Positions 14,445-39,066 of a stretch of DNA of 45,076 nt are shown here, one piece after another (the stretch's first letter is position 1; every line of letters begins with the position of its first letter). Both the position numbers and the translations under genes were made by a program. Origin of the DNA: Candidatus Zhuqueibacterota bacterium (GTDB taxonomy: Bacteria > Zhuqueibacterota > Zhuqueibacteria > Oceanimicrobiales > Oceanimicrobiaceae). Below the pieces are notes generated by a model. It was not told the DNA's origin. It saw only the letters and a program-made list of their open reading frames with translations, and made no database searches. Location: the NCBI GenBank assembly GCA_029262005.1, contig JAJDAG010000107.1:1-45076 (forward strand), read 5' to 3'.

Positions 14445-15215
14445 GTGTATAGAAAAGTCTTAACCCCTAATTTTGTAAGCGTGTTGGTGTTTTTAGTCAT
14501 AGTTCTGGTTGTCGCCAATGTTAGCATAACCGGCGCAAAGATTTATGAGCCGAATAATAAAACCGAAGCAATTGTCAGTGGCGGTACAATTACCGGGTCT
14601 GTGCGCTTTCCAGAGGAATACCCGGACCGGCAAAAATTAACCATTACCAAGGATCAGGCGGTTTGCGGGGCATTCCAATACTCGGAACTATTTGTCGTCT
14701 CCGAAGAAAATCACGGCCTGAAAAATGTTGTGGTTTCATTGTTAGGCGCCAAAGGAAAGAAACCTGAGGCAGGGATGGCTACGCTTAATCAAAAGAAGTG
14801 TCAATATGTTCCGCATGTACAGGCCGTTCCGGTAGGCACTACGCTTGAAATTCTCAATAATGACGGGTTGCTGCATAATGTGCACGGCTATCTTGAGAGC
14901 CTCGATCCGCAAAGTACCGTTTTTAACAAGGCCCAACCCAAATTCCTCAAAAAGATCAAACAAACGCTGGATAAACCGGGCACATATTATTTCAAGTGTG
15001 ATGTGCACTCGCACATGAGCGCCTATATCGCGGTCATGGCGCATCCGTTTTACGATGTGACCGACGCAGACGGCCGGTTTACAATTACCAATGTCCGGCC
15101 AGGCAGCTACACAGTGCAGGCGTGGCATGAAGAATTGGGAACATTAGAAAAAACCGTGACAGTAACCTCCGGCAAGACCGCTGAAATTACTTTTGATATT
15201 TTGCCGGGCGAGTAA
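14445..15215 (+). CDS. Membrane-anchored cupredoxin with carboxypeptidase-regulatory-like domain
   Basis: 256 residues from a GTG start with an ideal AAAGGAG seven bases upstream. N-terminal membrane helix (about 10-30) anchors a periplasmic part. Residues about 48-200 look like a plastocyanin-type copper domain: His144/His147 in LLHNVH, then GTYYFKCDVHSHM with Cys185 and His188/190 and nearby Met191/198, which matches the order His...Cys-X2-His...Met of a type 1 copper site. An extra Cys74 and Cys119 may form a disulfide. A beta-sandwich follows (DADGRFTITNVRPGSYTVQAWHE, 207-250), the peptidase-regulatory-like fold. Immediately follows the triheme cytochrome (18 bases), implying joint electron transfer. 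Copper binding is inferred from residues only. Confidence 0.83.
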   Translation: MYRKVLTPNFVSVLVFLVIVLVVANVSITGAKIYEPNNKTEAIVSGGTITGSVRFPEEYPDRQKLTITKDQAVCGAFQYSELFVVSEENHGLKNVVVSLLGAKGKKPEAGMATLNQKKCQYVPHVQAVPVGTTLEILNNDGLLHNVHGYLESLDPQSTVFNKAQPKFLKKIKQTLDKPGTYYFKCDVHSHMSAYIAVMAHPFYDVTDADGRFTITNVRPGSYTVQAWHEELGTLEKTVTVTSGKTAEITFDILPGE

Positions 15216-15387: not shown

Positions 15388-15516
15388 GCCCAACGGTATG
15401 CATATGAAAAGGTGGCGATTGCGTGGCAATTCACAATCAAGTTACACAAAATTTAAAGCGGGCTACAATTCTTGAATTTACAACTATTCCGCCTATTTGT
15501 TATATACATTTTGGGC
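15388..15516 (-). repeat. attC-like palindromic site A (after the GIY-YIG gene)
   Basis: About 129 bases. Begins GCCCAAC, which matches the integron R-box consensus RYYYAAC, and ends TTTGGGC, one base from its complement. Inner arms GCATATGAAAAGGTGGCGA and TCCGCCTATTTG...TATATAC pair imperfectly. It is clearly homologous to site B at 16427-16557 (shared AACGGT, TATATGAAAAG, GGCGATT, CGCCTATTT, TTATATACATT). It lies directly 3' of a minus-strand gene, as an attC would. Confidence 0.55.
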
Positions 15517-15521
15517 GGTCT

Positions 15522-16394
15522 TTAATTGTTTTCTCCTGATTCATAATCTTGTAATGTTTTGCCCGATTTCATTTTCCATTCAGTCAGTCCATTTGCACTA
15601 CGACCCATTATTATCATTGCTGCCGAAGAGGAACTACTAAATAAATAATCACGTTTTAGTATCATTTTATCTCGTTCCTTAACAATCACTCCCTCAGCAA
15701 TCAATGTATCTCGAAGTTTTTGCATTGTCCTTGGGTAAGAATTTGTCACAGGGTCAGCTACTTGTGAATTTTCAAAAACTACAAATCCCTCTGAAGTTGT
15801 CTTACCAATCCCATTTGCACCTCGTACCGCAGAAATGTAAAATAAATCTTCCTCTTTACCAATTTGCTCTATTGTATCAACTTGTCTAATTTGCTCAAAA
15901 GCATTGTATCCAAGCGTACTTATCAAAGTTAAGATATTTGAAAGAAATTCCTCCATTTCAGCCTTGTCAGACTCCGAAATGCTTGACTGTGTCGGTTTTT
16001 GAGTATTAATCAGTTCAAATCTATTTGCTGTTGTAGCAATCTCATGAAGTCTGTTTTCTAAATATTTAATATGAGCCTTATTTAAATTGTCATCTTTGCT
16101 TATAAATACAATTGCTTCGTTCCAAAAATCCTTTTCTTTTACATGCTGCGTCAGTCTTTTAAAAATATCTTCCGCTTCTCCGATGTACAACTGTCCTTTT
16201 TCCGATAAATCAGTACTTTTGTTCAAAAGCATGTACACACCTGTTGTCTGTAATTCAGGTCTGTCCGAGCATATCTTAATCGAGTTACGAGGAATTTTGT
16301 AAGCTTTACCTGTCCAATTTGATAATTCACAAGTTAGTCTTCCGTTTGTATCTCCATCAATCAAGAATAATTTTATCGTCTTTCCAAATTTCAT
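15522..16394 (-). CDS. GIY-YIG endonuclease-domain protein with C-terminal DUF4357-like domain
   Basis: 290-residue AT-rich gene. The GIY-YIG nuclease core starts at residues 52-54 (GVYMLLN) with YIG at 70-72, the catalytic arginine context DIFKRLTQH near residue 80 and the metal-ligand glutamate in KYLENRLHE near 113. The final part, about residues 200-280 (GKTTSEGFVVFENSQVADPV...LFSSSSSAAMIIMGRSANGLTEWK), is the DUF4357 pattern usually found fused to such nucleases. This architecture is common in mobile and defence-associated genes; a DNA or RNA substrate is not known. Codon use is far more AT-rich than the flanking cytochrome genes and it is bracketed by attC-like sites A and B, suggesting it arrived as a cassette. 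Confidence 0.82.
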   Translation of the reverse strand: MKFGKTIKLFLIDGDTNGRLTCELSNWTGKAYKIPRNSIKICSDRPELQTTGVYMLLNKSTDLSEKGQLYIGEAEDIFKRLTQHVKEKDFWNEAIVFISKDDNLNKAHIKYLENRLHEIATTANRFELINTQKPTQSSISESDKAEMEEFLSNILTLISTLGYNAFEQIRQVDTIEQIGKEEDLFYISAVRGANGIGKTTSEGFVVFENSQVADPVTNSYPRTMQKLRDTLIAEGVIVKERDKMILKRDYLFSSSSSAAMIIMGRSANGLTEWKMKSGKTLQDYESGENN

Positions 16395-16426
16395 ATCATT
16401 TTCGTAGTAGTGTCTGTTTTAATGCC

Positions 16427-16557
16427 GCACAACGGTTAGTATATGAAAAGTAGGCGATTTAGAAGCACAAAACTTTAAGTTAAGTACAAATTTTGATACG
16501 AGCCAAAAGCCTTGATTTTACTTATATTTCGCCTATTTTTTATATACATTGTTACCC
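16427..16557 (-). repeat. attC-like palindromic site B (after the DUF4287 gene)
   Basis: About 131 bases from GCACAAC to GTTACCC. Arms GTATATGAAAAGTAGGCGA and TCGCCTATTTTTTATATAC pair along 19 positions, with the two non-Watson-Crick positions being G-T wobbles on the plus strand. The outermost bases beyond AAC/GTT do not pair within the site: they pair across the neighbouring genes instead (16551-16560 with 17733-17742, 10 of 10). It is homologous to site A. Confidence 0.6.
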
Positions 16558-16564
16558 ACAGTTT

Positions 16565-17107
16565 TTATTCCGCATTTTGATAGGATTCCATTAGCCATTT
16601 TTTTAGCTCGCTATCAATTTCGCTTATATTCGATAATTTAACTCTGTGCGTACACATTGTCCCAAAAGGTCCTGAATTTTCAAGTCTATCTGTTGTCGGT
16701 TTGTCCTTAAATTTTAGCCCTAAATCAATTCGGGTTTTAGTTGCAGGTTTTATTAATGCAAATTGTTTTTTTCTGATTATGCTTACGCTTGTCTTTTTTG
16801 GTGTGATTGTTACATCTTTGCCAAATTCTTTGACCACAGTTAACAGACTTTCGTAAATCGGAAATAAATTTTCCTTTCCTTCGTATTGATTTTGAACAAG
16901 GTCTGTTGGCGATTCGTTTTCTTCCTTTGACAATGCCACAATTGTATTAGCAAATCCGTGAGTTACGTTGTGTTCTTTTTTTAGAAAATTCACAGCTTCT
17001 GAATGCTTGGAATAAGAATTTGTTTTAAGCACCTTTTTCCATTCGCTCAAGGATTTGCCCGTTTTTTCGGGCATATTGTCAATCATTGTTTGAAGAGCTT
17101 TGTCCAT
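16565..17107 (-). CDS. DUF4287/DUF5655 domain protein
   Basis: 180-residue cytoplasmic protein. The N-terminal half (MDKALQTMIDNMPEKTGKSLSEWKKVL...HSEAVNFLKKEHNVTHGFANTIV) is the DUF4287 helical module; the C-terminal half (LFPIYESLLTVVKEFGKDVTITPKKTSVSIIRKKQFALIKPATKTRIDLGLKFK) is DUF5655, a small domain proposed to bind nucleic acid. No enzymatic residues are recognised. It starts one base after the stop of the upstream SRPBCC gene, so the two are co-translated from one transcript. The pair forms one unit bracketed by complementary ends (GTTACCCACA on the left, TGTGGGTAAC on the right), as for an integron cassette carrying two genes. Confidence 0.8.
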   Translation of the reverse strand: MDKALQTMIDNMPEKTGKSLSEWKKVLKTNSYSKHSEAVNFLKKEHNVTHGFANTIVALSKEENESPTDLVQNQYEGKENLFPIYESLLTVVKEFGKDVTITPKKTSVSIIRKKQFALIKPATKTRIDLGLKFKDKPTTDRLENSGPFGTMCTHRVKLSNISEIDSELKKWLMESYQNAE

Positions 17108-17108
17108 A

Positions 17109-17696
17109 TTATTCTTTTTTTGTTTTTGTATCTGTTTCCAAGTACAAAATTAAGTTCATTAATAACTTTTCGTTAGCAGGTATGAAAAACTCCATTAGTG
17201 AAAGATATTTTGAGTTGTTTTTGTATCCAATACCATAAGATTTTACGCTAGTTATTCCTTTTTCCGTTTCTTCAAAGTAAATGACATTGTAAAAGTCCTT
17301 TGCTTCTTTTTTCATAAATTCCGGAAAATTGTCTGTTATCTCTGCTTGAAGCGTAATCAATTTTTTGGGAACATAATTTATAATATGTGTTACGATTGTT
17401 GTGCTGTCTCCAATTTTTCCTGCTTTGTTGTAATTGGTTTTTATAAATCCGCCAACTTTTAAATCAATTTCTGCGAGAGGAACTGCCCAACTTTCCCAAC
17501 CTTTTTTTGTGGTGTAAGCATTCCAAACAGAATCAATTGGCGAATTGACCGTAAACCCTTGGATTAATACTAATTCTGGAGTTTTGGTTGAGTCAATTGT
17601 TGATATAACTCTTTTTTGCTCTATTCTTTTTTTTTCTTGTCCGAATGACAGTGAAGTCAAAAAGACCGAAAAAAGTATGATTAGTATTTTTTTCAT
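17109..17696 (-). CDS. Secreted SRPBCC (AHSA1/START-like) domain protein
   Basis: 195 residues. Signal peptide MKKILIILFSVFLTSLSFGQ, so exported. The remainder is an SRPBCC ligand-binding fold: FTVNSPIDSVWNAYTTKKGWESWAVPLAEIDLKVGGFIKTNY, the characteristic AHSA1 start with a tryptophan in WESW, then ...GKIGDSTTIVTHIINYVPKKLITLQAEI and a final long helix EFFIPANEKLLMNLILYLE. The fold binds hydrophobic small molecules; the ligand is unknown. AT-rich. First gene of the two-gene cassette-like unit with the DUF4287 protein. Signal-peptide-bearing SRPBCC proteins of this type are frequent in Bacteroidota, consistent with acquisition from that group (inference). Confidence 0.78.
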   Translation of the reverse strand: MKKILIILFSVFLTSLSFGQEKKRIEQKRVISTIDSTKTPELVLIQGFTVNSPIDSVWNAYTTKKGWESWAVPLAEIDLKVGGFIKTNYNKAGKIGDSTTIVTHIINYVPKKLITLQAEITDNFPEFMKKEAKDFYNVIYFEETEKGITSVKSYGIGYKNNSKYLSLMEFFIPANEKLLMNLILYLETDTKTKKE

Positions 17697-17732
17697 ATCA
17701 GTTAAATTATTTGCTCTTTCGTTTCATCAAAT

Positions 17733-17797
17733 TGTGGGTAACTATTATATAAACCCATTGTTCTTATCACCCCATATTGGCGGGATAAACACAATTG
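17733..17797 (-). repeat. attC-like site C with a small hairpin core
   Basis: Starts with TGTGGGTAAC (17733-17742), the complement of the left end of the DUF4287/SRPBCC unit. The 42-base core 17756-17797 matches 21466-21507 at 34 of 42 positions, including the last 16 bases (GGGATAAACACAATTG), and folds around CCCCA/TTGGCGGG with CATTGTT pairing to AACACAATTG. The right boundary is unclear. Confidence 0.5.
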
Positions 17798-17901
17798 CGT
17801 TTATCTCTATTATACACGTATACACGTTTTTATCCGTGCCATACCCGCTGATTCCAGGCAGAGCACAAAATCCAACCTTACAACAAAATCTCAGCGAAAG
17901 A

Positions 17902-17936
17902 AAAACAGGGGCGCGGGAAATAGCCGCCCCTGTTTT
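17902..17936 (-). terminator. Rho-independent terminator of the 17945-18601 gene
   Basis: AAAACAGGGGCG (17902-17913) pairs with CGCCCCTGTTTT (17925-17936), a perfect 12-base-pair stem flanked by A- and T-runs. It begins 9 bases past the stop of the minus-strand gene. Confidence 0.88.
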
Positions 17937-17944
17937 CGAGATGA

Positions 17945-18601
17945 TTACGACGGGTCCACCAGACCCAGTCGTTCCAGATATTGCGGGTGCGACTTCAGGG
18001 CGATGCGGAGCACGCCGCGGAAATCACTCATCCAATCGTCCAGCTCAGCCAGTTCCTGGTCGCGGTCGTAGGTGGCGCGCTGTGACTCGCTGCTTTCTTT
18101 TAGTTGCGCCTGGTGTTTCTGCTGCATGGTTTCCACCAGCGCCTTGCCCGCGGTCAATCTGTCGGGCGTGATGTTGAAACGGGCCAGTCTGCTCAGGATT
18201 TCCGGAGAGTCAAGCGCCGCGCTGTAGAAGTTGAGCATCTGCATGTAGGCTTTGTCGTACGAATCTTCCCGGGTGCCGCCGAGATCGAGCTGGCTCAGCA
18301 AATTGCGGTCCCGTTTGAGGGTGATGCGGGCCAAACCCACCAGCTCAATATATTCTTCATAGGCTTGGCCGCGGGCTGCCCTCTGCTCGTCGGTGGCGCC
18401 AACTTTCTCGCCTTCCTCTTTGTCCTGCAGCAGATTCAGGTTAAAGGTGCTGTCGTAAAGCACCCTGCCCTGCTGCACGGTCGGCTCATCATAGCCGTAG
18501 TTGGCCAACAGCGGTTTGACAACCTCGTCGGTTTGGGCCACGTCAAGGTAGAGCTTGTACTTTGACAGGCGTTCGTTAATGGAAAGCAGAGTTATGTGCA
18601 T
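17945..18601 (-). CDS. Conserved-looking alpha-helical protein of unknown function
   Basis: I do not recognise this family. The start is the ATG at 18601, five bases after a perfect GGAGG; an overlapping upstream ATG at 18613 contains that ribosome site and is unlikely. 218 residues, no signal peptide, predicted almost entirely helical and acidic (LLANYGYDEPTVQQGRVLYD; ATDEQRAARGQAYEEY; ETMQQKHQAQLKESSESQRATYDRDQELAELDDWMSDFRGVLRIAL), with a coiled-coil-like stretch near 160-190. Composition is GC-richer than the AT-rich cassette genes around it, and it has its own strong terminator, so it looks like a resident gene rather than an acquired cassette. A 17-copy 21-bp tandem repeat lies about 115 bases upstream of its start. 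Confidence 0.75.
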   Translation of the reverse strand: MHITLLSINERLSKYKLYLDVAQTDEVVKPLLANYGYDEPTVQQGRVLYDSTFNLNLLQDKEEGEKVGATDEQRAARGQAYEEYIELVGLARITLKRDRNLLSQLDLGGTREDSYDKAYMQMLNFYSAALDSPEILSRLARFNITPDRLTAGKALVETMQQKHQAQLKESSESQRATYDRDQELAELDDWMSDFRGVLRIALKSHPQYLERLGLVDPS

Positions 18602-18716
18602 GGTAACCTCCATGTGGTTTGGTTAAAAAAAAAGGAACTGTTTACGGGTAACACCCGGCAAATCCCCATTTTGCCGTTCTTGGCTGACACTTTACTATTC
18701 TGTATTCCGGCTGCGG

Positions 18717-19073
18717 GTTTATCATTTTTAAGTGAAGGTATATCATTTTTAAGTGGCGGTTTATCATTTCTACATGAAGGTTTATCATTTCTACATGACG
18801 GTTTATCATTTCTACATGACGGTTTATCATTTCTACGTGACGGTTTATCATTTCTACGTGAAGGTTTATCATTTCTACGTGAAGGTTTATCATTTCTACA
18901 TGACGGTTTATCATTTCTACGTGAAGGTTTATCATTTCTACATGACGGTTTACCATTTTTGGCAGACGGGATATCATTTCTATGTGACGGTTTACCATTT
19001 TTGGCAGACGCGTATTGATTTTTCGCTGCGCTTCACTCATTTTTAAGTACCGCTGACTCATTTTTGATGGCGC
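18717..19073. repeat. Seventeen-copy 21-bp tandem repeat (minisatellite)
   Basis: Seventeen consecutive 21-base units, eleven well conserved and six diverged at the ends. Plus-strand core GTTTATCATTTCTAC followed by two variable positions (A/G and C/A). Because 21 is a multiple of three, frames stay open: plus reads heptads GLSFLHD or GLSFLRE, another plus frame reads VYHFYMT, and minus reads MINRHVE or MINLHVE. The minus frame (ATG 19061 to stop 18642, 139 codons) absorbs the A/G variation silently at the His codon. No frame has a good ribosome site. It lies upstream of the 17945-18601 gene. No spacers, so it is not CRISPR. Confidence 0.9.
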
Positions 19074-19330
19074 TCAGCCCCAATATTGGTTTCAGGAAGA
19101 CGAATGCAATCTACTGAACTCTGTTTTTTGGGGCAATAACAATTTTGCTCAGTGGTTGCGGGAGTACAGGGCACTTAAGTTGTTAACTCAAAGTACTTTC
19201 TAAAATTCACAATTTAAGGTCAAACGTCATGCGCCTGATTGTCACTCAGGAGGCGTCTTGTTAGCTTGGTAAACTGCTGTAAATTATAAAGATTCCTCCA
19301 GAATGACAAAAGTGCTGTGAATTATTCAGG

Positions 19331-19635
19331 TTAAGCAACTTTTCTATCCAGGGGTTTGATACGTGCGTACTCTTTTTTTCGAGTTTGTAATATATCCCAC
19401 ATATCAACGTTGTTTTGGAGACCAACCCAAAAGTCTGGTGTCGTATTAAAAAACGTAGCTAACCGAAAGGCTGTATCGGGAGTAATAGAACGTTTACCAA
19501 AAATAAGCTCATTAATACGAACGCGTGTTACACCAATCGCATTTGCAGTTGTTGTTGAGTCATTTTGAGTGGTTCAAGAAACTCATATCTAATGATTTCT
19601 CCGGGATGTGTTGGTCTTCTATTTTTTGGCAACAT
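19331..19635 (-). pseudogene. higA: Frameshifted HigA-type antitoxin (XRE family), orphan
   Basis: Translating from the ATG at 19635 gives MLPKNRRPTHPGEIIRYEFLEPLKMTQQQL, then a stop soon after. Shifting frame at 19547/19546 (one missing base) continues as ANAIGVTRVRINELIFGKRSITPDTAFRLATFFNTTPDFWVGLQ, ending at 19331. Together this is a complete HigA/VapI-type helix-turn-helix antitoxin of about 100 residues. No HigB toxin gene is found on either side (upstream only about 80 bases to the next gene). It is either a decayed toxin-antitoxin remnant or a real gene with a one-base assembly error. The region of the DNA-binding helix is intact in the second frame. Confidence 0.8.
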
Positions 19636-19677
19636 GTTTTTTCCCTTTACAATTAATGATATTGTACAAGTTCAAAT

Positions 19678-19707
19678 GCTGGGTTCAAAAATACGAACCC
19701 AGCCTAC
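19678..19707. repeat. Short hairpin repeat (REP-like), copy 1
   Basis: GCTGGGTTC pairs with GAACCCAGC around a short A-rich loop, then CCTAC. The 27 bases 19681-19707 match 21788-21814 with one mismatch. This copy lies 7 bases past the stop of the 335-residue membrane protein gene, so it could also act as a terminator or processing hairpin. Confidence 0.65.
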
Positions 19708-19714
19708 ATGACTA

Positions 19715-20722
19715 TTAGCTCAACAAGGAACAGGTGATAAGTAACTCACCATCTTTCTTCCATTGAATCCATCCAATATTCACCGTTTTATACTTATCAT
19801 CAACAAGTCGTACCATCATCCAATCATCTTTTATCTGCAAAGGTTTCATAAATTGAAATTTGCTATTTACTTCACCGGCTTGATGAGAAGGTTTATTACG
19901 GATGGTTTGTTCTCTTCCATTCACAAACTCAACCGAGTTTATGCCTAATAAAAAATCAGGCCAATAGAGGATGTCTCCGGTAACGCGGCTCACATAAGTA
20001 ATTCTTTGACTGTGAGTGTTGGCAATTACTTTAACAAAATCCCCACTAATGGATAGAATCCTGAAGTATAAAAATCCATAATCCAATTTCAGATGATCCG
20101 GAAGTAACCAGGGCGGAGCGTAGGTAATAACAAAACTCCCGCGCTCCAATCTTTTAAATATGATACTATCTGTGGGAACATGTTCCAAAACAGATTTTTC
20201 AAAATTGGGATTTCCATATAAATATAACACCGGGTTATTAGAAAAATCCGGTTTGAAAAAGCCTAATCCCATCGGGGTCTTGCGATCGCGGGTAATAGTA
20301 TTTTCAGCACCTGAGGGAGGTTTCGGCAATAAAGCGGCTGCCGGCGCTGTTGTCTTTTTTGGAGATTCTTTGACGGGATCCTCTTTTCGTTCCAGGCTCA
20401 TAAAGCGACCGATTCCAACCGCAATCGTCACTACAATTACCAGGATGTAATTTGTTTTTACGATCACTTCGCGTTTTAGATAAGATGCCATAAAAACTGA
20501 GGCAACAAAGGCGACAATAGCAAATATGGCGCCGACCTCAAAAACGTCGGCCACTCCGCCGAGACCCTGGCCTTTTCCCACGCCGGTCTTACTGGCATAA
20601 AGGACGCCTGCCACAAAGCTGAACAGAGTTGTCAAAAAATACAGTAGTAAACTTACTGGTCTAAATAATTTCCAATGGTCGCTGATCTGACCTAATTTTT
20701 CTGAGATGTTTATTTTATTCAT
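19715..20722 (-). CDS. Membrane protein of unknown function with large soluble C-terminal region
   Basis: 335 residues, family not recognised. Three probable membrane helices occur in the first third: VSLLLYFLTTLFSFVAGVLYA, VGAIFAIVAFVASVFMASYL and YILVIVVTIAVGIGRF. A Pro/Ala/Lys-rich linker follows (about 115-140). The remaining 190 residues are beta-rich and soluble (for example SIIFKRLERGSFVITYAPPWLLPDHLKLDYGFLYFRILSISGDFVKVI; the final WMMVRLVDDKYKTVNIGWIQWKKDGELLITCSLL resembles an SH3-like strand pattern). No catalytic motif is seen. It sits between a hairpin repeat and attC-like site D; its right end GCCGCTAAC has no clear complement on the left, so it cannot be shown to be a cassette. 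Confidence 0.7.
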   Translation of the reverse strand: MNKINISEKLGQISDHWKLFRPVSLLLYFLTTLFSFVAGVLYASKTGVGKGQGLGGVADVFEVGAIFAIVAFVASVFMASYLKREVIVKTNYILVIVVTIAVGIGRFMSLERKEDPVKESPKKTTAPAAALLPKPPSGAENTITRDRKTPMGLGFFKPDFSNNPVLYLYGNPNFEKSVLEHVPTDSIIFKRLERGSFVITYAPPWLLPDHLKLDYGFLYFRILSISGDFVKVIANTHSQRITYVSRVTGDILYWPDFLLGINSVEFVNGREQTIRNKPSHQAGEVNSKFQFMKPLQIKDDWMMVRLVDDKYKTVNIGWIQWKKDGELLITCSLLS

Positions 20723-20766
20723 AGGCTAAATTTACTATTTCTGCTTGTGTTCATTTTATAGCTTGC

Positions 20767-20898
20767 CGCTAACGTTTATGTATAAGAATAGTGCGGTTTT
20801 GTGTGCGAGGATTTTCCGAAAGGAAATCAGACGTAATAAAATTGCAACGACCTTTGGTTTAGCCAAAAAACAGCAATTATTTTTATACGGTGTTGTAG
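20767..20898 (-). repeat. attC-like palindromic site D (after the GNAT gene)
   Basis: About 132 bases from CGCTAAC to GTTGTAG. Arms GTATAAGAATAGTGC and GCAATTATTTTTATAC pair imperfectly. The terminal GTTGTAG (20892-20898) is the exact complement of CTACAAC at 21446-21452 on the far side of the GNAT gene, 7 of 7, whereas it pairs poorly with this site's own left end. Confidence 0.55.
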
Positions 20899-20912
20899 TG
20901 CGTTTTTATTTT

Positions 20913-21425
20913 TCACCATGGCAATCCATTTAATTCAATTTTAGCGGGATTCAATTTTTCATTTTTCGTCAAGAGCATAATATTCGCACCCCATAATTTT
21001 TGTCCGCTTGATTGTTCAAAATAAACTGGACATTTTACCTTGTACCAATTTAGTTTCTCATAAAAAGGTATTAAATTATCAGCACAGAGCAAAACTCCAA
21101 AGGCACATTTTAGTTCATCAAAAATTAGCTTTTCGGTATTTTTCAAAGTCTTTGATGCGTATCCTTTTCCGCGAAATTCTTTAGGCGTGATAACATTATT
21201 TATTCCGCCAATTTTATATATTTTGCCATCTACTGTAATCTCTCTTTCGATAATATTGTAGAAAGTAGCAATTAGGTCATTTTTATAATAGACTATTGTC
21301 CAATCTGGCGTTGCCCATTCTGTTTCATTTACTATAGGAATATGTCCAAATTCATTATCAATAAATGAATTCAGAGCGTTTTTAGTTTTCTCTAATAATT
21401 CAGAATATTTTTTTATTTCGATCAT
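20913..21425 (-). CDS. GNAT-family N-acetyltransferase
   Basis: Acetyl-CoA-dependent acyltransferase, about 170 residues. I use the ATG at 21425 (MIEIKKYSELLEKTKNALNSF); a TTG at 21440 would add five residues but has no ribosome site. Core motif A is visible as GGINNVITPKEFRGKGYASKTLKNTEKLIFDE, with RGKGYA being the pyrophosphate-binding loop, followed by FGVLLCADNLIPFYEKLNWYKV, the motif B helix with a NLIPFYEKL typical of the fold. The acceptor is unknown; such genes in cassette arrays are often, but not always, antibiotic-modifying. It is AT-rich and bracketed by complementary GTTGTAG/CTACAAC ends at sites D and E. Confidence 0.83.
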   Translation of the reverse strand: MIEIKKYSELLEKTKNALNSFIDNEFGHIPIVNETEWATPDWTIVYYKNDLIATFYNIIEREITVDGKIYKIGGINNVITPKEFRGKGYASKTLKNTEKLIFDELKCAFGVLLCADNLIPFYEKLNWYKVKCPVYFEQSSGQKLWGANIMLLTKNEKLNPAKIELNGLPW

Positions 21426-21445
21426 TCTGTAATTTTTCAAATGAC

Positions 21446-21525
21446 CTACAACGTTAGTGTATATTCATTGTTATTACACCACCAAAATGGTGGGATAAAC
21501 ACAATTGTCTATATACCCCTGCGCA
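21446..21525 (-). repeat. attC-like site E, left end and hairpin core
   Basis: Begins CTACAACGTTAG, the complement of the far end of the GNAT unit. The core 21466-21507 is the homologue of site C (34 of 42) and folds around CACCA/TGGTG with flanking GTATAT and GTCTATATAC arms. No GTT right end is evident, so the site may be truncated or recombined. Confidence 0.45.
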
Positions 21526-22725: not shown

Positions 22726-22818
22726 TATCTTCTCATTCCTTTTGTATTATTAAATTAGTGGTTTCACAGCATGTTACATGCGTGAACATTATGTCAAAAG
22801 ACCAACCTATCGAACTGC

Positions 22819-22956
22819 GCATAACTTGCGCCGATTTTATTAGTACTAATTTTTATAATTCCTCAAATCTTCCGAGCATCACAAAACTAAAATTGCGCAC
22901 CGGAGAAAGGCGCCAAGTTGATGCGGTGGTTATGTAGCATATTCTGCGAGTTAGGC
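22819..22956 (-). repeat. attC-like palindromic site F with bulged bases
   Basis: GCATAACTTGCGCC (22819-22832) pairs with GGCGCCAAGTTGATGC (22909-22924), leaving one unpaired C and one unpaired G on one arm. Extrahelical bases of this sort mark integron attC hairpins. The stop codon of the neighbouring gene lies within GTTAGGC (22950-22956), a perfect match on the minus strand to RYYYAAC (GCCTAAC), as is common in cassettes. Confidence 0.5.
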
Positions 22957-23322: not shown

Positions 23323-23508
23323 TTTTCGCACCTCCTTGCAACATACCACTTTTTTCACCGGCTGCCATTCAATCTGCATTCAGTGAAATGGACTGATTTT
23401 AGTAATTTGCAAATTCGTAAATTCGCGCACAATAATGGCAGCCCGTGTGCAAAAAAAGTTAGGCATGCTGCTACCGTGCCACAAAGGCCGCCACCACCAC
23501 AAATGCCC

Positions 23509-30604: not shown

Positions 30605-32995
30605 ATGTCCTGGGAAAAATTTGTCTCTGCAATAAAACGGCAGCATAGCCGCTGCAATGGTTCTTTGATCGAATATGATCTGACGCCTTATGTTGAAATT
30701 TTGCATGAAATCAAGACGGTACAAAAAACATTCAAAAACAAATCGGATCTTCAACTTAGGGAAATCTCTAAACAAAATATCCAACTCGTGCGCCAGTCGG
30801 GGCTTTCTGAAACACATTTGATCGAGGCGTTTGCCCTGGTCAGTGAAGGGATTTGGCGGGTACTCAAGCTCAAGGCTTTTGATGTACAGATCATGGCGGC
30901 CGTGGCGTTGCACCGGGAAAAAATTGTCGAAATGCAGACCGGCGAGGGCAAAACGCTCACCGCTGTCTTTCCGGCTTACTTGAATGCGCTGACCGGCAAC
31001 GGCGTGCACGTGCTGACTTTCAACGACTATCTCGCCTGCCGCGATGCCGGGTGGATGGGCCCGGTTTACACTTTTCTGGGGCTTTCATTTGGGTGTGTCC
31101 GGGAAGGCATGACGACTCGGGAACGTCAGAAAATGTACCGGGCGGACATCACTTATTTAACCGCAAAAGAAGCCGGTTTCGATGCGCTGCGGGACGGACT
31201 TTGCACTCAAATCTCGCAGCAGGTGGTCCAGCGTCCGCGTCATTTCGCAATCGTGGATGAAGCGGATTCGATTTTGATCGACGAAGCTCGAATTCCTCTG
31301 GTTATTGCGGCGACAGGCGACGAGCCAATTCCGGATACCTACCGCACTGCCGAACTTGTCCACAACTTAAAAAGTGGCGTTGATTTCGAATTCGATGATT
31401 ATGCGCGCGACATAGATCTGACGGAGACCGGAGTTAAAAACATCGAATCTGCGCTGCGCTGCGGCAATCTCTACGCATACGAAAACATCGAGACTCTAAC
31501 GCAAATTAACTGTGCGTTGCATGCAGAACACCTGCTCCAGCTCGATGTCGATTATATTGTCCGTGCGGGTGAGATAGAGCTGGTCGATGAATTCACCGGT
31601 CGCGTGGCAGAGAAGCGGCGCTGGCCGGATGGGCTGCAGGCAGCGCTTGAAGCAAAGGAAAAACTAACCATTCGCAAGCAGGGACACATTCTCAACTCGA
31701 TCACCTTGCAACATTTTATACAATTTTATCCCAAATTGAGCGGCATGACGGCGACCGCTGTTTCCGCTGAAGCGGAGTTTCGTAATTTTTACGATTTGGG
31801 AATTGCCGTGATTCCGCCAAACAGGCCGTGCATTCGCATCGATCATGAAGATATGATTTTTAAAACCAAGGCTGAAAAAGAGCGCGCCCTGACTGACGAA
31901 ATTGCCATGATTCATGAATCCGGGCGCCCGGTTCTGGTTGGCACCGCCAGTGTGGAGGAGTCCGCAAATTTGACAAAATCGCTGCTTGACCGCGGGTTGA
32001 AGTGCGAGGTTCTCAACGCTAAAAATGATGCGCGCGAAGCAGAAATCATCTCCAGAGCAGGCCGCCTGGGGGCCATTACCATTTCGACCAACATGGCAGG
32101 GCGCGGCACCGATATTTGCCTGGGTACTGATTCTAAAAGTGAGAGAAAAAGGATTCTGGACCTCGATGGATTGTACGTCATTGGCACCAATAAACATGAG
32201 AGCCGGAGAATCGATCAACAGCTCCGTGGCCGCTCCGGACGCCAGGGCGACCCGGGAAGCTCCCGGTTTTTTATCAGCCTGGAGGATGATCTGTTCATCA
32301 AGTACAAATTGAGCGAACTCTTGCCAAAAGCTTTTGCTGAAAACAATGCCGACGGAGAAATCGACAGCCATATTTTAAGAAATGAAATTAACCGGACTCA
32401 GCGAATTGTCGAGGGCCAAAACCTGGAAATCAAAAAAACGCTTTGTCGATATTCGTCGCTGCTTGAAAAGCAACGCATCATTGTTTTTGAAAAACGGAAC
32501 AGGGCGCTGCAAGATGAGTTGGCCGTTGATTTATTCAGGGGCCTGGCGCCGGAAAAATTCAAGCTCTATCAAGGGCAAATCGGCGCAAAGAACCTCAAAG
32601 ATCGGTGCAAAAAGATCTTTCTTGCCATCCTTGACAAAGCCTGGGCAACCTACCTGGCCGAGATAGCCGAAATCAGAGAAGGAATTCACTTGCACAGGCT
32701 GGGTGGGCAGGTTCCCTTTTTTGAATTTCAAAAGGTGGCGGTGCAACGCTTTGACAAGTTGCTCGAGACTTTGGGTGAAGACGCACTTACCATTTTTAAC
32801 AATTTTGAAGCCGAAGGGGACAAGTTGAACGCGCCTTCTGCAACCTGGACTTATTTAGTCAACGACAATCCTTTTGAAAATATGCTGGGATTTCTGCAAC
32901 CCGGAAATACAAAAATAAACATCGATCCGGTGACAGGGCTATTTATTCTGGCCATCCTATTACTTAATAAGATCGGCAAAAACAAAAAGAGCTGA
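30605..32995 (+). CDS. SecA-like preprotein translocase ATPase, non-canonical paralogue
   Basis: 796 residues with GAGGAG before the ATG. It keeps the SecA motor: Walker A MQTGEGKTLTA (residues 110-120), DEAD at 218-221 in IVDEADSILIDEARIPL, a preprotein-crosslinking-domain region (LVDEFTGRVAEKRRWPDGLQAALEAKE), LSGMTATA, STNMAGRGTDI and RIDQQLRGRSGRQGDPGSSRFFISLEDDL. Differences from housekeeping SecA: it is about 100-200 residues shorter, has no C-terminal CXCXSG...CHG zinc module, and the N-terminus has no usual motif. The C-terminus ends in a short hydrophobic segment GLFILAILLLNKIGKNKKS. It resembles an accessory SecA2-type ATPase rather than the main SecA. The function, possibly export of specific substrates, is inference. 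Confidence 0.88.
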   Translation: MSWEKFVSAIKRQHSRCNGSLIEYDLTPYVEILHEIKTVQKTFKNKSDLQLREISKQNIQLVRQSGLSETHLIEAFALVSEGIWRVLKLKAFDVQIMAAVALHREKIVEMQTGEGKTLTAVFPAYLNALTGNGVHVLTFNDYLACRDAGWMGPVYTFLGLSFGCVREGMTTRERQKMYRADITYLTAKEAGFDALRDGLCTQISQQVVQRPRHFAIVDEADSILIDEARIPLVIAATGDEPIPDTYRTAELVHNLKSGVDFEFDDYARDIDLTETGVKNIESALRCGNLYAYENIETLTQINCALHAEHLLQLDVDYIVRAGEIELVDEFTGRVAEKRRWPDGLQAALEAKEKLTIRKQGHILNSITLQHFIQFYPKLSGMTATAVSAEAEFRNFYDLGIAVIPPNRPCIRIDHEDMIFKTKAEKERALTDEIAMIHESGRPVLVGTASVEESANLTKSLLDRGLKCEVLNAKNDAREAEIISRAGRLGAITISTNMAGRGTDICLGTDSKSERKRILDLDGLYVIGTNKHESRRIDQQLRGRSGRQGDPGSSRFFISLEDDLFIKYKLSELLPKAFAENNADGEIDSHILRNEINRTQRIVEGQNLEIKKTLCRYSSLLEKQRIIVFEKRNRALQDELAVDLFRGLAPEKFKLYQGQIGAKNLKDRCKKIFLAILDKAWATYLAEIAEIREGIHLHRLGGQVPFFEFQKVAVQRFDKLLETLGEDALTIFNNFEAEGDKLNAPSATWTYLVNDNPFENMLGFLQPGNTKINIDPVTGLFILAILLLNKIGKNKKS

Positions 32996-36200: not shown

Positions 36201-38449
36201 GAAATCACTCGATCCTTGTAAGAAAGGATGATTTCACTCGCTTCAGTAATAGATTTGCTTAAAATAGCATTCGCTTCACCGGGTTTTGCCACAGGCACCG
36301 ATTTGTTAAATATCTGAAAATCAGTAATCACGATTGGCGGAATATAGTGGTTATCTTGAATGCTATCCGGATGGAAGATGTTAAATCCGTTGATGCTGCC
36401 AAAGAACATCTCCCCGGCTTTGTTCTTGCAGGCAGCGCCGAGATTGAACTCGTTGCTCTGTAATCCATCGGTAACATCATAGTTCCTGAAAGTTTCTGTT
36501 TGCGGATTGAACCGGCTCAATCCTCTTACTGTGCTTAGCCAGAGATTGCCATGGTCATCTTCGAGAATATCATATACCAAATCAGTAGGAAGCCCGTCGC
36601 TTTCTGTATAATGAGTGAATTTTTGCGTCACCCGATCGAATTTATTCAGCCCTCCGGCTGTGCCTATCCACAGAAAGCCGGTTTTATCTTCATAAATAAA
36701 TAAAATTTCTTGATTGTTTAAGGCTCCGGGCCTTGCGTGATCAGCATGATAACTAACAAAACTTCCGTTCTCTCTCACAAATCTATTGAGACCGTAGATC
36801 GTGCCAATCCAAAGCTCTCCTAAGTGATCTTCAGCGATGGCATAGATGTAATTATCGCTTAAACTCTTTGGCGCGGCCGAATCGTGTACAAAACGAGTGA
36901 AATTATCTTGTTCGCGCTGAAACCGGTTCAGGCCGTCATCTGTGCCAATCCACACTTGGCCGAATCTGTCTTCGTAGATATCCCTAACATAGTCGCTACT
37001 GAGACTGAGTGAATCTTGTGGATTATTCACATACCGAATGAATCTCTCTGTCTTATGATCAAATCTATTCAACCCACTTTCCGTACCCACCCACAAGGCA
37101 CCCAAACGGTCAGTAAGAACGACCCTCACTTCATTCGAACTCAAACTGAAAGGGTTATTGGGGTCATGTTTATAATGGAGGTATATATTTTTGTTCCGGT
37201 CAAGTCTGTTTAGTCCGCCTCCGTGTGTACCTATCCAATAAATGCCATCCCTCTCCTCGTAAATGGTACGAACGGTATTGCCACTCAGACTCCCGGGGTT
37301 ATTGATATCCGTTTCAGCATGAAAGAACTTCTTGGCGGCCATATCATATTGATTGAGTCCCCTTGCTGTACCCACCCATAGCACGCCGGAGCGGTCTTCA
37401 AAGATCGAATAGATGTGATTGCCATTCAAACTTCGAAGATCGAATGCACTTGATTGATGATGAGTAAATGTATCTGTTTTGCGGTCAACACTGCTCAATC
37501 CTCCTCCGTCCGTGCCGATCCACAGGGTTTCCTTGCTGTCTTCATAAATGACAGTTATGCTCTTATGGCTCAGACTGTTAGGCGTATCCGAGTCAACCAT
37601 GTAGCGCGTAAATGCGTTTTTGGCCGGGTCAAATTTGTTTAAACCATTTTTTGTGCCGAGCCAAAGCATCCCCGATTTGTCCTCAAACACACACACAACT
37701 GAATTGTCGCTCAGACTGTTCGGAGCATCAGGGGACGAAAGGTAGTGAACGAATTGCCTGCTGTCAGGGTCAAATCTGTTTAAGCCTCCATCCGTGGCAA
37801 TCCACAGGGCTCCCGAGCTATCCTCACAAAGTGCGCGTACCCGGTTGTGACTCAGGCTATTCGGCTTTGATACATCCGCAAAGAACTGAGTGAACTTTTC
37901 GGTTTTCGGATCGAAGGCGTTGAGCCCGTTTTCTGTGCCAACCCACAGAATTCCGGCCCGATCCGCCAACACGGTGTAAACGAAATTACTACTCAGGCTG
38001 TTCGGGTTCCGGGGATTGGCCAGGTAGCACACAAATTCATCTTTGTCGCGCACATATCGATTTAAGCCTCCGCCAATGGTGCCGATCCACAATCTTCCGG
38101 AACGGTCTTCATGGATGGCGCCAATGTAGTTATAACTCAAGCTTGTGGTGTCATCCTGGTTGTGTTTATACACTTTATAAGAATGACCGTCATATCTGTT
38201 CAGACCGTCTTCGGTGCCAAACCACATGAAACCACGATAATCCTGCAGGATGCTGGATACGGTTGTTTGAGAAAGTCCGTCTTCGGGGGGGAGTCGACGA
38301 AACCTGATCGCCTGTTCCCCGGCATACAAATTGAAGGACAGTATAAAAAGCATGCAGCAGCCAAGAATCAGAACTAACGGTGTTGAGGGGAGGGGTGTAC
38401 GTGACCCGGTCTCTACGGATTTGGATAGGCGGTCTGTCGATTCCATCAT
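33299..38449 (-). CDS. Hybrid two-component sensor: beta-propeller sensor, GAF, histidine kinase and three receivers
   Basis: About 1,716 residues from ATG 38449 (GAAAGG just upstream; a GTG at 38494 is the longer option). Order: signal/membrane segment [21 protein letters not shown]; about 14 Reg_prop propeller blades (repeating GLNRFD...LW.GT.GGLN pattern, residues 50-660); a Y_Y_Y domain ([37 protein letters not shown]); a membrane helix [17 protein letters not shown]; coiled coil; a GAF domain; HisKA H-box [14 protein letters not shown]; HATPase DSGIGIA...[20 protein letters not shown]; then three receivers. Receiver acceptor aspartates are intact ([32 protein letters not shown]) with TKP lysines. 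No HTH or output gene follows, so the output partner is elsewhere. Such propeller sensors detect polysaccharides in Bacteroidota; the ligand here is unknown. Confidence 0.93.
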
Positions 38450-39066
38450 CGCCTTTCGGCTAACTTCTCGGCCCTGGGATACACTTTGTATCACGCTTCG
38501 AATGGTCTCCTGCCGTGATCCGGATCGGATTTCAAACCGCGTTGATGTCCCATCCCCGTGACATTTTCGGGCACCCGCAAAAGTAAGAACGGGACAGCCA
38601 CGCTTCTCGCGACCATTCTTTGCCAGTTGTTGTTTTTTGTACTCAATAGTACGATCCTCATCGTTTGAGGCTCTCTAATCGTATAACCTCGATCGTCGTT
38701 CAGAGTCGCGGCTATTTACACCTCACAGAGCGACTGGTAATAGTGGTTTCTCGCGGTCAGATCACGACTTTGCGTGATTGTTTTAATTATCGGCAACGTC
38801 ACTGGATATTATAGGCCATAAGCGTTTAGTCGCCTTAATGTAATTAGTTTTGTGTTATTGTACTTAACCCCACTGCCCGGTTTCTTTCTTTTCTGATAGC
38901 TTTCTTCACATCTCTCATTGCAATGCAGCAACTGTACCGGGGCAGAGTCAGTGGGCCCGGGGAGCAAAGAATCTATTTCGACATAAGCGTAGGGTTTTTC
39001 CAAAGTAAACTGTAGGAGCATGGTAAGCAGTTTAACTTAATACATCTCATCAAAATGGAGGCTAAA
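38450..39066. other. Intergenic region upstream of the hybrid kinase and the secreted metallopeptidase
   Basis: About 600 bases between divergent genes. It holds both promoters and perhaps control sites. Around 38650-38770 there are several inverted-looking CGATCGTCGT and TCGCGGTC words, but I cannot define an operator. A minus-strand frame at 38809-39021 has no ribosome site and is likely chance. Confidence 0.4.

What the first reader, a model, noticed from the sequence alone, without database searches (positions are those of the whole stretch)
15388..21525. Integrase-less attC-like cassette array identified by ends that pair across genes
Seen: at least five minus-strand units (A, B, D, F, G) are each followed directly by a 95-132 bp imperfect palindrome with AAC at the left and GTT at the right. 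Decisive detail: in three units the flanking bases pair across the gene and not within a palindrome. DUF4287/SRPBCC: GTTACCCACA (16551-16560) and TGTGGGTAAC (17733-17742), 10 of 10. GNAT: GTTGTAG (20892-20898) and CTACAAC (21446-21452), 7 of 7. GIY-YIG: TTTGGGCGG (15510-15518) and CCGCACAAC (16425-16433), 7 of 9. Known: integron cassettes recombine at G/TT, so the R' half of each site derives from the next cassette and matches its own R'' across the gene. That is what is observed, and a MITE or simple terminator would pair internally instead. Single strandedness, AT-rich small genes and bulged hairpins (site F) agree. Inference: this is a CALIN-type array in an FCB phylum with non-standard R-box sequences. 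No integrase gene is visible.
Basis: partly seen in the sequence, partly recalled or inferred. Interest (0 to 1): 0.78.

Follow-up and report, generated by a model that had tools for sequence, protein, structure and literature searches.

The report
Integron cassettes with a non-IntI integrase
The window holds small gene cassettes of an integron-like gene-capture system that is widespread in Bacteroidota and relatives, appears to use a different recombinase and different DNA hairpin sites from known integrons, and seems to have gone largely unrecognised.

Summary
The cassette reading is right, but 'integrase-less' and 'standard attC' are not. Sites A, B and F belong to a hairpin family (covariance model R2, E 1e-14 to 1e-22) distinct from the classic attC sites beside IntI genes in the same phylum. 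The family has AAC/GTT ends, a 10-bp R box pairing across each cassette, and arm helices separated by A·C mismatches conserved in 60-63 of 63 sites. The arms covary strongly (238 double changes against 6 single). The bottom strand is predicted to fold better in 61 of 63. At least 128 of 296 sampled Bacteroidota genomes carry such sites, up to 53 in 80 kb. At 14 of 16 assessable loci, chosen by recombinase and not by site, co-oriented sites follow a tyrosine recombinase that lacks the IntI-specific domain and forms its own clade. One cassette is 97.8% identical in Zobellia and Algoriphagus, both ends at GTT. The host genome carries this recombinase (C73) and, separately, a true IntI (C106). Sites D and G match the element beside the C73 recombinase, so they are probably attI remnants. 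In the window alone, cross-gene pairing is not better than chance. Nothing was tested experimentally.

The parts
15392..15513 (-). Site A: cassette recombination site of the R2 family (outer right base triplet degenerate, TTG for GTT)
   Evidence: R2 70.1 bits, E 4.6e-14 in own genome; R1 98.9 bits. A and B were among the model's seed sequences
15522..16394 (-). Cassette gene: GIY-YIG + DUF4357 protein (290 aa), candidate anti-phage defence PDC-S14
   Evidence: Pfam; PADLOC PDC-S14 382 bits
16431..16553 (-). Site B: best-conserved recombination site of the family in the window
   Evidence: R2 100.1 bits, E 7.6e-22; same type as >=120 stretches in public genomes
16551..16561 (-). R'' box of the DUF4287/AHSA1 cassette; in gene orientation C|TGTGGGTAAC, closing A.C mismatch at position 8
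   Evidence: sequence; rule from 121 site pairs
16565..17107 (-). Cassette gene 1 of 2: DUF4287 + DUF5655 protein
   Evidence: Pfam
17109..17696 (-). Cassette gene 2 of 2: AHSA1/SRPBCC-like protein
   Evidence: Pfam
17732..17742 (-). R' box of the same cassette; in gene orientation GTTACCCACA|A
   Evidence: sequence, best AAC partner of B within 3 kb
17740..17800 (-). Site D: attI-like site (core 17757-17797) at the upstream end of the first mini-array; no recombinase beside it
   Evidence: 41-nt motif shared with C73:500-540 beside the recombinase, C10:21467 and C121:1981; 0 in reversed control
19715..20722 (-). Gene left of F (335 aa, no Pfam match); would be the next cassette, but its own site was not found
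   Evidence: no R2 hit to its left
20771..20894 (-). Site F: recombination site of the R2 family
   Evidence: found by R1 at E 1e-4 before it was used in any model; R2 73.5 bits, E 5.9e-15 (F among the seeds)
20913..21440 (-). Cassette gene: GNAT acetyltransferase (175 aa)
   Evidence: Pfam Acetyltransf_9
21450..21510 (-). Site G: attI-like site (core 21467-21507) at the upstream end of the second mini-array
   Evidence: 78% identical to D over 49 nt
22813..22931 (-). Possible classic (IntI-type) attC; weak, no cross-gene partner found
   Evidence: arm score 22, shuffles give 0-1 such sites per window; no partner
23340..23460 (-). Possible classic (IntI-type) attC with one-sided bulge; no cross-gene partner found
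   Evidence: arm score 28, 0 such sites in 5 shuffles; no partner

Best explanation
The region holds two short gene-cassette arrays of an integron-like system (SHOWN: site family, cassette ends, clustering). Each cassette is one or two minus-strand genes plus a ~123-nt recombination site. When the cassette is a circle, its start (GTT+7) and the end of its own site (7+AAC) form one 10-bp R box. The site's two arms fold into a hairpin whose A.C mismatches on the top strand become G.T wobbles on the bottom strand. The bottom strand is therefore INFERRED to be the recombining form, as in integrons. Excision and insertion happen at G/TT (SHOWN by one cassette shared between two bacterial classes with both ends at GTT; the chemistry is INFERRED). 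The catalyst is INFERRED to be a tyrosine recombinase of a clade separate from IntI and Xer and lacking the IntI-specific domain. Its gene lies immediately upstream of the arrays in Bacteroidota, pointing toward them, with an attI-type palindrome between its stop codon and the first cassette. This genome keeps one such gene (C73). Window sites D and G are INFERRED to be attI sites whose recombinase gene is lost or sits elsewhere, so the cassettes are stranded or are served in trans from C73. The separate IntI integron on C106 uses classic attC sites. It may also act here, but nothing shows it.
For: Site family: 63 sites with 95.2% of cells paired against 65.4% shuffled (0/500), 13 of 14 pairs with double changes, slid structures 23-39%; A.C at the two arm mismatches in 60 and 63 of 63. 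R box: 121 adjacent pairs, match 0.97, 0.97, 0.93, 0.93, 0.93, 0.88, 0.62, then 0.017. Bottom strand more stable in 61 of 63 arm hairpins, mean -9.1 against -6.7 kcal/mol. Recombinase next to arrays: loci picked by recombinase, not by site; 14 of 16 with enough downstream DNA have sites, 38 sites in all, every one downstream and on the same strand (counted). Polaribacter filamentus: 53 sites in 80 kb behind the recombinase, 45 of 52 segments with a co-oriented longest ORF. Recombinase clades: IntI 100/100, this clade 93/97, Xer 99.9/100; spacing to the HxLRH motif 107, 65 and 73 residues. Cassette shared between Zobellia and Algoriphagus, 97.8% over 892 bp, both ends at GTT, directly behind the recombinase in Algoriphagus. 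Own genome: recombinase plus attI-type element on C73, same element at D, G and C121 only; 7 R2 sites genome-wide at E<=0.001, 3 of them within 5.5 kb of the window. Most site-bearing genomes lack IntI over cut-off (46 of 49).
Against: No recombination assay. Co-location does not prove catalysis. The recombinase clade's support (93/97) is lower than that of IntI or Xer. The window's own cassettes are partly degenerate (A lacks GTT; the GIY-YIG ends do not pair well; F and G pair over 7 nt only). Two of 16 assessable recombinase loci show no site. In one related genome (G018:C440) a site lies on the upstream side of a recombinase fragment. The alignments behind R2 were seeded from one sequence pattern, so the family may be wider or less uniform than it looks.
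Confidence: 0.77

Rival explanations
1. Ordinary CALIN: the cassettes are standard integron cassettes moved by the genome's own IntI (C106), and the site family is just an AT-rich flavour of attC.
For: An intact IntI with a divergent cassette array and a classic attC lies on C106. IntI is common in the phylum: 35 of 82 genomes over cut-off. IntI1 is known to accept very diverse attC sites; in a published assay one of two sites of a Polaribacter phage recombined with IntI1 (PMC9892861), and that phage also carries R2 sites, though which site was tested is not clear to me.
Against: The R2 model finds no site in 20 loci cut around IntI genes of the phylum. 46 of 49 site-bearing genomes have no IntI over cut-off, yet nearly all have the other recombinase. 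Arrays sit behind the non-IntI recombinase.
Confidence: 0.13
2. The palindromes are dispersed repeats (MITE- or REP-like) or intergenic terminators that merely sit between small genes.
For: They are palindromic and AT-rich and lie 3' of genes. The genome does contain an unrelated dispersed ~130-bp repeat with at least 40 copies, one of them inside the region at 19203-19330.
Against: R2 sites number only about 7 in this genome at E<=0.001 and cluster. In Bacteroidota they form head-to-tail arrays with one orientation, and the flanks of neighbouring sites pair across the gene. Homology between genomes stops at GTT. Covariation with almost no G-U intermediates argues against an RNA terminator.
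Confidence: 0.04
3. D and G are degenerate attC sites rather than attI sites, so the region is one long array (A to G and beyond) instead of two mini-arrays with platform ends.
For: D and G are palindromic, begin with AAC like the other sites, and lie where the next site of an array would be. The 222-aa gene and tandem repeats between D and F could be later insertions.
Against: R2 does not match them. They share a 41-nt core with the element between the C73 recombinase and its first cassette, and neither carries the expected GTT at the other end.
Confidence: 0.25

Closest known systems
Integron with IntI and attC/attI (sedentary chromosomal integrons, e.g. the IntI array on G049:C6 in this phylum)
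   Same: Tandem co-oriented small genes, each followed by a hairpin site; junctions at G/TT; R'/R'' complementarity across the cassette; tyrosine recombinase beside the array; predicted bottom-strand preference
   Different: Recombinase is not IntI and lacks the IntI-specific domain. Sites have a 10-bp R box and conserved A.C mismatches instead of one-sided bulged bases. The recombinase gene points toward the array
Treponema 'atypical' integrons with intI transcribed toward attI (PMC3607928)
   Different: The Treponema recombinase is described as IntI; here it falls outside the IntI clade. Sites were not compared directly
CALIN (cluster of attC sites lacking an integrase; IntegronFinder 2.0, PMC9024848)
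   Same: Clustered sites with no recombinase gene in the window
   Different: Defined by the IntegronFinder attC model, which could not be run here; site family and cognate recombinase appear different; attI-like sites are present
XerA / NCBIfam NF040815 'site-specific tyrosine recombinase/integron integrase' proteins
   Same: The recombinases score 233-240 bits against a cut-off of 220
   Different: That model is named for the archaeal Xer protein; as far as I can see it describes no cassette array or recombination site family

Membership tests
Integron (IntI type) | Integrase of the IntI family with the IntI-specific additional domain, linked to the array | tested here: not met
   No recombinase in the window; the recombinase linked to this site family lies outside the IntI clade and lacks the domain (65 against 107 residues), 207 and 184 bits against cut-off 265. 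A true IntI exists elsewhere in the genome (C106)
Integron (IntI type) | Array of co-oriented gene cassettes separated by palindromic sites | tested here: met
   Window sites A, B and F plus genes, all minus strand; 53 sites in 80 kb in Polaribacter filamentus
Integron (IntI type) | Cassette junction at G/TT with R'/R'' complementarity across the cassette | tested here: met
   121 adjacent pairs; Zobellia/Algoriphagus cassette
Integron (IntI type) | attC-type hairpin: R and L boxes, unpaired spacer, strand-asymmetric features (extrahelical bases) | tested here: inconclusive
   R box, spacer and L box present with strong covariation, but the asymmetry is by A.C mismatches, not by extrahelical bases
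Integron (IntI type) | attI site next to the integrase where cassettes enter | tested here: inconclusive
   Palindrome plus GTT boundary follows the recombinase stop codon in many loci and a recently exchanged cassette sits there in Algoriphagus; insertion was not assayed
Integron (IntI type) | Recombination of the folded bottom strand | not testable with these tools
   Only predicted: bottom strand more stable in 61 of 63
CALIN | At least two attC sites by the IntegronFinder model, no integrase nearby | not testable with these tools
   The IntegronFinder model is not available; with R2, A and B lie about 1 kb apart and no integrase is in the window
MITE / dispersed repeat | Copies at unrelated loci with target-site duplications | tested here: not met
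   Few, clustered copies, ordered arrays, ends at AAC and GTT with flanks that pair across genes; target-site duplications were not searched for as such

The most novel reading that the evidence does not exclude
A second, independent integron system: superintegron-scale cassette arrays spread through Bacteroidota and related phyla, run by a tyrosine recombinase clade outside IntI that works without the IntI-specific domain and recognises hairpin sites marked by conserved A.C (bottom-strand G.T) pairs instead of extrahelical bases.
Probability: 0.68. Interest if true: 0.93.

Novelty: new variant of a known kind. Interest (0 to 1): 0.88.

Why it matters
Integrons are described as rare in Bacteroidota: IntegronFinder 2.0 reports one complete integron in Bacteroidetes, in Salinibacter ruber, after only integrase-only elements before (PMC9024848). 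Here at least 128 of 296 sampled Bacteroidota genomes carry cassette sites of another family. If the linked recombinase is the catalyst, folded-cassette recombination does not need the IntI-specific insertion that is held to be essential for integron function (stated in PMC8138268). That makes the origin of integrons directly testable. It would also reveal a very large pool of mobile genes that standard tools may miss; one cassette in this window encodes a candidate anti-phage defence protein.

Tried and rejected
Blind cross-gene pairing in the window as proof: not significant. Rfam: no match in the window. The full-site DNA folds of single window sites were mostly no better than shuffles (B and D better, A, F and G not); only the comparative evidence is decisive. 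A BLASTN search of phages with site B found nothing, although the covariance model does find sites in one Polaribacter phage. Pattern for the D/G type in viral contigs: none. I tried to tell whether the experimentally tested Polaribacter phage attC sites (PMC9892861) are of this family; the text does not give coordinates, so I leave it open. The L083/L147 shared cassette ends at GTT on one side but not clearly on the other. Literature searches for Bacteroidota integron systems found no description, but preprints and most subscription journals are not in that library.
Full report
OBSERVATION. All quoted sequences are at the stated coordinates. Tested blind, cross-gene pairing in 15388-21525 is not unusual: one exact GTT+7 pair against 0.25 expected, and 12 GTT+4 pairs against 11.9. 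Only the DUF4287/AHSA1 cassette has a full 10-bp pair, and its partner at D is the best among AAC positions within 3 kb.

HOST GENOME. The window is contig C10 of a 5.77-Mb draft of 205 contigs. The genome is not free of integrases. C106:2782-3723 scores 442 bits for the integron integrase family (cut-off 265), with minus-strand genes diverging from it and a classic attC at 583-702. In the same phylum 35 of 82 genomes have IntI over cut-off. One of them (G049:C6) shows a full classic array whose cassette ends pair across genes over 8-11 bp, e.g. GTTAGGCGACG/CGTCGCCTAAC.

A SEPARATE SITE FAMILY. An exact pattern from sites like A and B hit at least 120 stretches in public genomes, nearly all Bacteroidota, with a few KSB1, Calditrichota and Cloacimonadota records. 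The 82 sites read agree from AAC to GTT while the flanks diverge outside. A model from 50 of them (R1) found site F at E 1e-4 before F was used in any model, and many diverged sites behind recombinases. On 63 diverse sites a 14-pair arm structure has 95.2% paired cells (65.4% shuffled), 238 double-change cells and only 6 one-sided ones. Lack of G-U intermediates fits selection on DNA rather than RNA. Two arm positions are A.C in 60 and 63 of 63. On the bottom strand these become G.T. With DNA parameters the bottom-strand arm hairpin is more stable in 61 of 63. The second model, R2 (A, B and F are among its seeds), finds nothing in 20 loci cut around IntI genes of the phylum. In the whole host genome it finds 7 sites at E<=0.001, three of them in the window.

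CASSETTE ENDS. In 121 adjacent, same-strand site pairs the bases after GTT of one site match the complement of the bases before AAC of the next: 0.97, 0.97, 0.93, 0.93, 0.93, 0.88, 0.62 for positions 1-7, then 0.017 at position 8, where the listed pairs are A.C. Shuffled partners reach at most 3.09 of 8 against 6.24 observed. The window's DUF4287/AHSA1 cassette obeys this exactly: C|TGTGGGTAAC at B and GTTACCCACA|A at D in gene orientation.

RECOMBINASE. Only 3 of 49 site-bearing genomes have IntI over cut-off, but nearly all have proteins that match the IntI model in two pieces with the middle missing. Twenty such loci were fetched by recombinase position, without regard to sites. Four end within 0.7 kb of the stop codon. 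Of the other 16, 14 have sites: 38 in all, every one downstream and on the same strand (my count). A palindrome and a GTT boundary follow the stop codon in many loci. In Polaribacter filamentus 53 sites occupy 80 kb behind the recombinase, median spacing 962 nt, 45 of 52 segments with a co-oriented longest ORF. The recombinases form a clade (93/97) apart from IntI (100/100) and Xer (99.9/100). The distance from the GKxKDR region to HxLRH is 65 residues, against 107 in IntI and 73 in Xer, so the IntI insertion is absent. Two members tested pass the NCBIfam model NF040815, named for archaeal XerA and 'integron integrase', and fail the IntI model's cut-off. Which of IntI or Xer is the nearer relative cannot be said from an unrooted three-clade tree.

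MOBILITY. A cassette is 97.8% identical over 892 bp in Zobellia uliginosa and Algoriphagus aquimarinus, members of different classes. Homology starts at (C)GTT and stops at the GTT closing the site. In Algoriphagus it lies directly behind the recombinase. This is the expected trace of one insertion at attI.

THE WINDOW. In this genome the recombinase of this clade is on C73 (566-1447, minus), 293 aa, and beside its stop codon stands a 41-nt element at 500-540. The same element (up to 3 mismatches) occurs at D (17757), at G (21467) and at C121:1981 and nowhere else; a reversed control gives none. I therefore read D and G as attI-type ends of two mini-arrays, D-B-A and G-F, whose recombinase gene is missing. 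Whether the C73 enzyme serves them in trans is unknown. Possible classic attC sites at 22813-22931 and 23340-23460 have no cross-gene partners and are left open.

PREVALENCE. R2 sites at E<=1e-6 occur in 128 of 296 Bacteroidota genomes drawn evenly by the tool (a lower bound, since few candidates per genome were scored) and in 24 of 82 genomes of the host's phylum at E<=1e-3.

KNOWN OR NEW. It works like an integron. It is not filed as an IntI integron because the defining integrase was tested and not met. IntegronFinder 2.0 reports one complete Bacteroidetes integron (PMC9024848), and the taxon-specific attC models of PMC8352920 include none for Bacteroidetes. Treponema integrons share the recombinase orientation (PMC3607928). 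I found no description of this system in the searchable library, which lacks preprints and most subscription journals.

SHOWN AND INFERRED. Shown by sequence: site family, covariation, R-box rule, co-location, clade, domain absence, cassette exchange. Inferred: catalysis by this recombinase, bottom-strand use, attI role of D and G, and current activity in this host.

Noticed in passing
window:19203-19330: A dispersed ~130-bp repeat with at least 40 copies (80-100% identical) across the host genome; one copy also lies beside the attI-like element on C121.
   Followed up: partly
window:18674-19063; L017:2174-2488: Arrays of 21-bp tandem repeats lie next to a 222-aa gene (window 17945-18613) and to a similar-looking 223-aa gene on C73 (2628-3299); both stand near attI-like elements for no obvious reason.
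   Followed up: no
L272 (Polaribacter phage P12002L, NC_028924) 14503-14624, 31118-31313, 32224-32280, 32798-32924, 38036-38089, 38880-38935, 39123-39244: A lytic phage carries several sites of the same family, some beside DNA methyltransferase and Mom-like genes, so phages may carry these cassettes.
   Followed up: partly
L069:4700-4900: A viral contig has a site of this family directly after what looks like the end of a terminase gene, followed by minus-strand DUF262/HNH-like coding sequence; the left AAC of the site is damaged. Gene names are my reading, not searched.
   Followed up: no
window:15522-16394: The GIY-YIG/DUF4357 cassette protein matches the candidate defence family PDC-S14 at 382 bits.
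   Followed up: partly
L014:1-2740 (G000:C106): The genome's classic IntI integron is cut off by the contig end; its cassette region includes genes for a 292-aa and a 310-aa protein.
   Followed up: no
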